Shown: positions 13,445 through 19,384 of the stretch, piece by piece
Layout of the letters: each line of letters begins with the position of its first letter
Numbering within the stretch: the first letter of the stretch is position 1
Origin: Erwinia pyrifoliae DSM 12163
GTDB taxonomy: Bacteria; Pseudomonadota; Gammaproteobacteria; Enterobacterales; Enterobacteriaceae
Length of the DNA: 27,341 nt
Direction: 5' to 3'
Assembly (NCBI RefSeq): GCF_000026985.1
Contig: NC_017392.1
Span: 3,069 to 30,409, forward strand
Notes under the pieces: model-generated
The model's database searches: none
The model's input: the letters and a program-made list of their open reading frames with translations, nothing else
What the model was told of the DNA's origin: nothing
Made by a program: the position numbers and the translations under genes

Positions 13445-13476
13445 AGCAGGTATCTTCAGACGTCATCAAGATACGA

Positions 13477-13586
13477 GTCTTCCTACGCCAGTATCAGCTG
13501 GGTCAGGTTCTAAGGGTCGCTAAGCCGCGAAAATCGCTATTAGCCTCTCAGTCTCTCTGGCGAGACTCCCCTGACAGGGACTAGTT
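13477..13586 (-). ncRNA. TPP riboswitch (THI element)
   Basis: Read on the minus strand, the conserved TPP aptamer blocks appear in order: CAGGGGAGTC (about 13575-13566), ACTGAGAGG with the pyrimidine-sensor CTGAGA (13551-13546), GACCCTTAGAACCTGA (ending near 13503) and ACTGGCGTAGGAA (down to 13480). Outer AGTC/GACT segments close the P1 helix. It lies 160 bases before thiO and ahead of an intrinsic terminator, which implies repression by thiamine pyrophosphate through attenuation. Confidence 0.93.
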
Positions 13587-18416: not shown

Positions 18417-18606
18417 CCAGAACCGGAGAAGGACCTGTCTGAAAGGAAATCAAAGGGCGGGGAAAATGCCGCCTCAACGCCGCACGAGCTGGCATTTAAA
18501 CAGTTTGCCCCTATCCCTATACCGCACAGGATTTCATGCAGCTGCACCTGCCGCCAGATCTGCAGGCCGTCTACGATCTCAACACGCTGAAACTGGAGTC
18601 AGGCCG
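18417..18606 (+). pseudogene. Fragment of an Rpn/YhgA-like nuclease gene
   Basis: The plus strand encodes STPHELAFKQFA and, after a one-base frame change near 18511, YTAQDFMQLHLPPDLQAVYD followed by LNTLKLESG. This matches the start of the Rpn (recombination-promoting nuclease, YhgA-like, PF04754) family, usually written TPHDAVFKQFLTHPE...ARDFLDIHLP...LCDLSTLKLESG. Everything after LESG is lost, including the PD-(D/E)XK catalytic core. Dead remnant. Confidence 0.7.
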
Positions 18607-18854: not shown

Positions 18855-19043
18855 CTATTTTCTTGATGTTATATTCAATGAAAGCCGAACAAGAAAAATA
18901 AAAATGATTAACATGACAATAAAGCTGGATAGTGTTTTTGGAAACTTATACCAGTCGCAGAACATGACACCAGAACCGCTCAAAAGAGATGAACCCGTTA
19001 GTATGCTAAAAAAAACACAGGCTGACTTTCTTAAAATATCCAT
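18855..19043 (-). CDS. Putative microcin immunity protein, two TM segments
   Basis: A 62-aa membrane peptide with two hydrophobic segments, about 9-28 (CVFFSILTGSSLLSGSGVMF) and 39-57 (LSSFIVMLIIFIFLVRL). They are joined by a short polar loop (CDWYKFPKT), and the ends are basic (MDILRK, NITSRK). The start codon follows GAGGGAAT, a strong ribosome site. It lies 59 bp downstream of the microcin-like precursor on the same strand, with a stem-loop between them. Class II microcin immunity proteins (Cvi and others) are small inner-membrane proteins encoded beside the toxin, so role and position agree. No sequence family is recognised. The function is inferred from context. Confidence 0.55.
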   Translation of the reverse strand: MDILRKSACVFFSILTGSSLLSGSGVMFCDWYKFPKTLSSFIVMLIIFIFLVRLSLNITSRK

Positions 19044-19055
19044 ATTCCCTCGTGG

Positions 19056-19078
19056 GCAGCCCTGTTATTAAGGGCTGC
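19056..19078. repeat. Perfect stem-loop between microcin and immunity genes
   Basis: GCAGCCCT-N7-AGGGCTGC. No U-run on the minus strand. It could act as a partial terminator or an mRNA-protecting structure that sets toxin and immunity levels separately. Confidence 0.65.
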
Positions 19079-19102
19079 ATAGTTAAAATGATGCTTTCCT
19101 TG

Positions 19103-19309
19103 TCAGCGATTAAAGCACCCTCCAGCGATAGCCCCCCCGATCAAACCGAGTGTCAGGCCTGGTATTCCTCCCATTGCTCCTGCAATCATTCCACCGATAA
19201 TCCCATTATTGCAGTTTATAACGTATTGATCACCATAATTCCTTTGATGAAGAAGGCTGTTACTCGCACCATAAATTAAAATACTCTCTTCTTTTTTTAA
19301 CGCTTTAAT
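19103..19309 (-). CDS. Putative class II microcin precursor (double-glycine leader)
   Basis: A 68-codon minus-strand frame with the build of a colicin V-type microcin. The leader (MKALKKEESILIYGA with the start read as Met) has L at -12, E at -8, I at -4, G at -2 and A at -1, the pattern cut by CvaB-type peptidase transporters. The mature peptide of about 53 aa (SNSLLHQRNYGDQYVINCNN...) carries a glycine-zipper membrane segment (GGMIAGAMGGIPG...LGLIGGAIAGG). It has two cysteines, C33 and C65, which could form a disulfide. There is no ATG; the frame has an ATT start 8 bases after AAGGG. A consensus promoter lies 47 bp upstream and a putative immunity gene downstream. No exporter genes are in the window. 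Alternatives: a dead copy whose ATG mutated to ATT. Confidence 0.6.
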   Translation of the reverse strand: MKALKKEESILIYGASNSLLHQRNYGDQYVINCNNGIIGGMIAGAMGGIPGLTLGLIGGAIAGGCFNR

Positions 19310-19355
19310 TTTTAAATCCCTTTATTAATGTATCTATACAGTTGAGCTCCCGGAA

Positions 19356-19384
19356 ATTAAAATATAATAAAAAATTCCTGTCAA
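19356..19384 (-). promoter_or_regulatory. Strong sigma70 promoter of the microcin unit
   Basis: On the minus strand TTGACA (19384-19379, perfect), 17-bp spacer, TTTAAT (19361-19356). The spacer is very AT-rich. It gives a 5' leader of about 40 bases to the ATT start of the precursor. The AT content makes it a likely target of H-NS silencing. Confidence 0.75.

What the first reader, a model, noticed from the sequence alone, without database searches (positions are those of the whole stretch)
18855..19384. Unannotated class II microcin with putative immunity gene
Seen: on the minus strand, a perfect TTGACA-17-TTTAAT promoter, then a 68-codon frame whose first 15 residues fit the double-glycine leader pattern (L-12, E-8, I-4, G-2, A-1). 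The mature part has a glycine zipper (GGMIAGAMGG, LGLIGGAIAGG) and two cysteines. Then a stem-loop, and a 62-aa two-TM protein with a strong ribosome site. Known: colicin V-type microcins have this leader, a Gly-rich membrane-active core and a small membrane immunity protein beside them. Inferred: an antibacterial peptide not found by ATG-based gene calling.
Basis: partly seen in the sequence, partly recalled or inferred. Interest (0 to 1): 0.88.

Follow-up and report, generated by a model that had tools for sequence, protein, structure and literature searches.

The report
Silenced-looking microcin beside its immunity gene
A plasmid of a pear pathogen carries a real but mostly overlooked gene for a small bacteria-killing peptide next to its likely protective partner gene, but in this species the killer gene has a very poor start signal, so the bacterium probably keeps the protection while making little or none of the weapon.

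Summary
The features exist and the family assignment is right. The window is an Erwinia pyrifoliae plasmid of the pEP36 type. The 68-codon minus-strand frame (19309-19103) belongs to a family of leader peptides with an invariant Cys-glycine-zipper-Cys core (14 of 14 rows) that includes E. coli microcin S. Its cysteines match the two that are essential in microcin PDI. The 62-aa neighbour is a conserved partner: a homologue lies directly downstream in 16 of 21 comparison loci, including an unannotated ORF in the microcin S operon.

Corrections: (1) sister plasmid pEJ30 already lists the gene as 'bacteriocin-type signal sequence'. (2) The first codon here is ATT, as in all six E. pyrifoliae plasmid records; two sister plasmids have a standard start codon. 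(3) The peptide lacks the C-terminal tail of microcins S and PDI.

The chromosome keeps a CvaAB-type exporter and an immunity-like gene, but the microcin found there in two sister genomes is deleted; a third precursor is truncated. Best reading: a core-only class IIa microcin pair in a probable immune non-producer or weak producer. No activity was tested.

The parts
19356..19384 (-). promoter-like site: TTGACA (19384-19379), 17 nt, TTTAAT (19361-19356)
   Evidence: read; not listed by the consensus scan because the -10 lacks A at position 2; spacer one base shorter in pEJ30 and pJE01
19318..19322 (-). AAGGG ribosome-binding-like site, 8 nt before the ATT codon
   Evidence: read; same in pEJ30 and pJE01
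19103..19309 (-). microcin precursor frame, 68 codons plus stop, first codon ATT; leader = residues 1-15 (ends Gly-Ala), core = residues 16-68 with C33 and C65
   Evidence: annotated in pEJ30 and pJE01
19056..19078 (-). stem-loop between the two frames
   Evidence: 8 of 200 shuffles of the 71-nt stretch fold as well
18855..19043 (-). 62-aa two-helix membrane protein, putative immunity protein
   Evidence: homologue directly downstream of 16 of 21 comparison microcin loci; two helices predicted; family search

Best explanation
The locus is a compact class IIa-type microcin precursor gene and its membrane immunity gene; its core is homologous to those of microcins S and PDI. Intended working (inferred): the 15-aa leader is cut after Gly-Ala by a CvaB-type transporter that exports the peptide with a fusion protein and TolC; the 53-aa peptide (about 5.32 kDa) forms one disulfide between C33 and C65, inserts in the inner membrane of a neighbouring related cell as a glycine-zipper helical hairpin and disrupts it; the 62-aa protein in the producer's inner membrane blocks it. 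Shown here by sequence: leader pattern, invariant core, conserved partner gene, and an exporter pair on the chromosome whose peptidase has C32, H105 and D121. Not shown: export, toxicity, uptake, immunity. In this species the precursor starts with ATT, so translation is probably very low, and the strain is most likely an immune non-producer or weak producer, in line with two other decayed microcin precursors on its chromosome.
For: Homologues with the same core: 8 besides the Ejp617 protein itself, 55-76% identity; both cysteines and most core glycines invariant in 14 of 14 rows; two homologues carry a precomputed Bacteriocin_IIc domain, PF10439. Microcin S (pSYM1, L045) matches the family profile, E 4e-9, with Cys at 57, 90, 109 and 118 (one search shows them one lower, as the first Met was left out); in microcin PDI C57 and C90 are required, C109 and C118 not (PMC5311971, passages). 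Partner homologue directly downstream in 16 of 21 loci at E <= 1e-4, 10 of 15 not used in the profile. Chromosomal MFP and PCAT with C32/H105/D121. First codon ATT in the window and six of six E. pyrifoliae plasmid records; standard in two of two sister plasmids, and four short homologues have Met at the aligned position. Microcin body missing at the exporter locus and a third precursor truncated. A Listeria reporter gave least expression with ATT of three codons (PMC13068326, passages).
Against: No activity, expression or immunity data. For the window peptide PF10439 scores 15 of the 27.1 bits needed. The leader pattern alone is not above chance. Exporters of this type are common in the genus (32 of 37), so having one is weak evidence; 2 of 19 genomes with a family peptide have none. 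The plasmid carries no exporter genes in the annotated stretch. The frame has no stop or frameshift in any of the records, which a long-dead gene might show. In microcin S immunity comes from mcsI, a different protein (PMC3316575, passages). 5 of 21 comparison loci lack a clear partner. ATT does start infC in Listeria.
Confidence: 0.7

Rival explanations
1. The ATT codon is a working low-rate start codon, so that E. pyrifoliae still makes a small, perhaps regulated, amount of active microcin.
For: The frame is otherwise open and complete in the window and all six E. pyrifoliae plasmid records; an AAGGG site stands 8 nt before the codon; ATT starts infC in Listeria and gave low but detectable protein in a reporter (PMC13068326, passages); the chromosome has an exporter.
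Against: The two sister plasmids and the short homologues have a standard start; the two other microcin precursors seen in this genome are decayed.
Confidence: 0.25
2. The 62-aa protein is not the immunity protein but another conserved membrane partner, for example an accessory to export or a second peptide of the system.
For: In the microcin S operon a homologue lies between mcsS and mcsI, yet mcsI alone gives immunity (PMC3316575, passages); L087 has the same order with a CPBP-type gene after it.
Against: No CPBP-type gene is annotated near the present pair; size (62 aa), two membrane helices and position directly downstream fit known immunity proteins (51-216 aa, membrane helices; PMC10233263, passages). 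In microcin PDI the immunity gene mcpI is described as close to mcpM (PMC5311971, passages).
Confidence: 0.2
3. The peptide is a glycine-zipper membrane protein with some other, non-antibacterial role.
For: Glycine zippers are general membrane motifs (recalled); two Sodalis-group relatives lack the leader pattern.
Against: Leader, cysteine pair, partner gene and homology to microcin S.
Confidence: 0.05
4. Chance open frames in non-coding DNA.
For: The leader pattern alone occurs by chance about 0.37 times per shuffled window.
Against: Homologues, invariant core and conserved neighbour.
Confidence: 0.02

Closest known systems
Microcin S (plasmid pSYM1, E. coli G3/10) and microcin PDI (McpM), class IIa
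   Same: Double-glycine-type leader, Cys-glycine-zipper-Cys core with the pair equivalent to C57 and C90, small two-helix ORF directly downstream in pSYM1.
   Different: One 15-aa leader instead of two 18-aa ones; no C-terminal tail with the third and fourth cysteines; no exporter or CPBP-type gene annotated beside it; first codon ATT in E. pyrifoliae.
'Bacteriocin-type signal sequence' protein WP_173145461.1 of pEJ30 and hypothetical protein WP_041474744.1 of pJE01
   Same: The same gene at the same place on sister plasmids.
   Different: Standard start codon; a few residue changes; the pEJ30 copy has Val for Gly in the zipper.
Class II microcin candidates of Erwinia and Pantoea (PMC13174018: abstract, passages, sections 16 and 18)
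   Same: Plant-associated Erwiniaceae, class IIa type, candidate immunity ORFs alongside.
   Different: Those described in the main text have C-terminal domains and mostly linked exporters; E. pyrifoliae is not named in the main text; supplements were not opened.
Short metagenome homologues P0002, P0003, P0005, P0007 (66-73 aa)
   Same: Leader and core without a long tail; with the present gene they look like a core-only subgroup.
   Different: Start with Met; genomic context not seen.

Membership tests
class II microcin | leader of 15-19 residues ending Gly-Gly or Gly-Ala | tested here: met
   15-residue leader with L-12, E-8, I-4, G-2, A-1
class II microcin | small core peptide under 10 kDa | tested here: met
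   53 residues, about 5.32 kDa; shorter than the 60-90 listed for known cores (PMC10233263, passages)
class II microcin | PCAT and fusion-protein exporter available in the genome | tested here: met
   chromosomal pair, C32/H105/D121 present; not linked to the plasmid locus and common in the genus; that it handles this peptide is not shown
class II microcin | adjacent small membrane immunity protein | tested here: inconclusive
   position, size, two helices and conservation fit; protection not tested
class II microcin | antibacterial activity | not testable with these tools
   needs an expression test
class II microcin | translated gene with a usable start codon | tested here: inconclusive
   ATT in E. 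pyrifoliae, standard in two sister plasmids
class IIb microcin | Gly/Ser-rich C-terminal siderophore motif | tested here: not met
   peptide ends three residues after C65
microcin PDI / S | core homology with the pair equivalent to C57 and C90 | tested here: met
   essential residues from PMC5311971 passages
microcin PDI / S | second leader segment ending G35-A36 | tested here: not met
   single leader of 15 residues
microcin PDI / S | C-terminal tail with cysteines 109 and 118 | tested here: not met
   absent
microcin PDI / S | linked CPBP-type gene and exporter genes | tested here: not met
   none annotated in the 29,320 bases of pEP36 shown; present in L045 and L087

The most novel reading that the evidence does not exclude
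A core-only microcin (leader plus Cys-zipper-Cys hairpin, 53 mature residues, no C-terminal uptake domain) that works without the uptake module of its relatives; and E. pyrifoliae as an evolved immune non-producer, in which three microcin precursors have decayed separately while the immunity-type genes beside two of them and the exporter stay intact.
Probability: 0.35. Interest if true: 0.65.

Novelty: new variant of a known kind. Interest (0 to 1): 0.5.

Why it matters
It gives a minimal natural form of the microcin S/PDI core, useful for asking what the C-terminal domain is for. It points to a conserved two-helix partner family, including an ORF without annotation in the well-studied microcin S operon whose role can be tested directly. 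And it offers a natural case that looks like weapon loss with protection retained in a plant pathogen, which bears on how bacteriocin producers, resistant cells and sensitive cells coexist.

Full report
Where it is. The window region matches six E. pyrifoliae plasmid records at 99.9-100% over the 1,151 bases searched (two of the six are both from strain Ep1/96, and one is named pEP36). The genome that holds the window has a 4,026,286-base contig, the size printed for the chromosome of strain DSM 12163T (PMC2827408, passages). Two sister plasmids of Japanese Erwinia strains, pEJ30 and pJE01, are 97% identical there. E. amylovora pEA29 (CFBP1430) has other genes at this place, and a six-frame search of the plasmid collection for the peptide found only the eight E. 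pyrifoliae and Ejp records.

The observation. The frame, leader pattern, glycine zipper, two cysteines, stem-loop and 62-aa frame are all present. The promoter is good at -35 but lacks the conserved A of the -10, and the scan does not list it. By itself the leader pattern is no more than chance would give (1 in the window; mean 0.37 in 30 block-shuffled windows). What makes the gene real is its relatives.

The peptide family. A search of 5.8 billion proteins gave nine hits, one of them the Ejp617 protein itself; the other eight have 55-76% identity over the aligned part. In an alignment of 14 rows both cysteines and most core glycines are invariant. A profile search found the core in 15 of 392 genomes of the family and, with the later profile, 11 of 37 of the genus, the own genome counted in both; some of these hits are weak, up to E 4e-4. 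With the profile the microcin S precursor of E. coli G3/10 (plasmid pSYM1, L045) matches at E 4e-9 and a microcin S/PDI-like precursor, annotated as hypothetical, on another E. coli plasmid (L087) at 2e-10. In microcin PDI the cysteines at 57 and 90 are required and those at 109 and 118 are not (PMC5311971, passages); microcin S has cysteines at the same four positions (allowing for its left-out first Met). The window peptide keeps only the equivalents of the essential pair, C33 and C65, and ends three residues later. Four metagenome homologues of 66-73 aa are equally short. So there seems to be a natural core-only form. The C-terminal part of some known class II microcins is described as the uptake domain (PMC13174018, section 18); how a peptide without it would enter a target cell is open. 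AlphaFold2 draws the core as two helices, 27-45 and 49-62, at moderate confidence (mean pLDDT 66), with no convincing fold match.

The partner. The 62-aa protein had no hit as a single sequence. A profile made from six relatives without the window finds it at E 1e-17. The same profile finds a similar protein directly downstream on the same strand in 16 of 21 comparison microcin loci at E <= 1e-4. Six of those 16 built the profile, leaving 10 of 15 independent ones; three more are weak (E 0.03-0.15: L035, L039, L086) and two have none (L038, L043). All 24 partner hits with E <= 0.15 among 8,020 ORF pieces lie beside a microcin hit; the 24 include the window, pEJ30 and pJE01 copies and two copies of the microcin S locus, and the two next hits (E 0.5 and 0.95) do not. 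In the microcin S operon the homologue is an ORF without annotation between mcsS and the CPBP-type gene. In that system mcsI, the CPBP-type protein, gives immunity on its own (PMC3316575, passages), so immunity by the small protein is likely but not shown. A search with the family alignment gave 10 proteins, one of 62 aa at 63% identity to the window protein.

The start codon. The first codon is ATT in the window and in all six E. pyrifoliae plasmid records: two were read (L004, L005) and the other four are 100% identical over the region. Both sister plasmids have a standard start codon there and are annotated. In a Listeria reporter study ATT gave the lowest expression of three codons, yet infC uses it (PMC13068326, passages). 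Between E. pyrifoliae and Ejp617 the microcin frame differs at 5 of 207 sites and the partner at 1 of 189, against 14 of 340 upstream; these numbers are too small to measure selection.

The rest of the genome. An exporter pair stands on the chromosome, the peptidase with C32, H105 and D121, the positions given for CvaB in PMC9746304 (passages). Two sister genomes (G420, G406; PCAT 86%, MFP 83% identical) carry a small membrane ORF, a double-glycine peptide and this exporter in a row. E. pyrifoliae has the membrane ORF and the exporter but lacks the peptide's body: about 325 bases are missing against G420, and what remains is the first part of its leader. A third precursor, at C3:1937498-1937599, stops after 33 codons. 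In G403 an exporter pair 75-77% identical to this one lies between two peptides of the present family, one of them a weak hit (E 0.0045) with a clear partner. Exporter peptidases of this type occur in 32 of 37 genomes of the genus and in 17 of 19 genomes that carry a family peptide, so their presence is permissive evidence only.

Conclusion. It is best described as a compact relative of microcins S and PDI with a conserved two-helix partner, and in E. pyrifoliae most likely a weapon turned down or off while the protection stays. Retention of protection after loss of the weapon is an inference from three decayed precursors in one genome. In print: a search for Erwinia pyrifoliae with bacteriocin and microcin gave no paper in the held library, and neither word occurs in the main text of two Erwinia genome papers searched by term; PMC13174018 does not name E. 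pyrifoliae in its main text, and its supplements were not opened.

Noticed in passing
L045 6570-6785 (E. coli G3/10 plasmid pSYM1): An ORF without annotation between the microcin S gene and the CPBP-type immunity gene encodes a homologue of the 62-aa partner.
   Followed up: partly
L009 8519-9188 (E. pyrifoliae chromosome, C3): Immunity-like ORF and exporter kept, microcin body deleted (about 325 bases against sister genome G420).
   Followed up: yes
L088 1492-1593 (C3:1937498-1937599): A third double-glycine precursor in this genome, cut off after 33 codons.
   Followed up: partly
18500-18604: About 105 bases match the Rpn-family nuclease gene of E. amylovora pEA29 (999 bp there); the annotated remnants in pEP36 and pEJ30 are 150 and 252 bp, so the insert seems to have cut this gene.
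   Followed up: partly
L031 9404-9679 and L032 9379-9693: Sodalis-group relatives keep core and partner, but their N-terminus lacks the leader pattern; G364 has no C39 exporter peptidase.
   Followed up: no
L002 3341-3547 (pEJ30): The Ejp556 copy has Val for a Gly in the zipper.
   Followed up: no
13463-13582 and 125-265: TPP riboswitch (minus strand) and an isrN-like small RNA match just above its gathering score.
   Followed up: no
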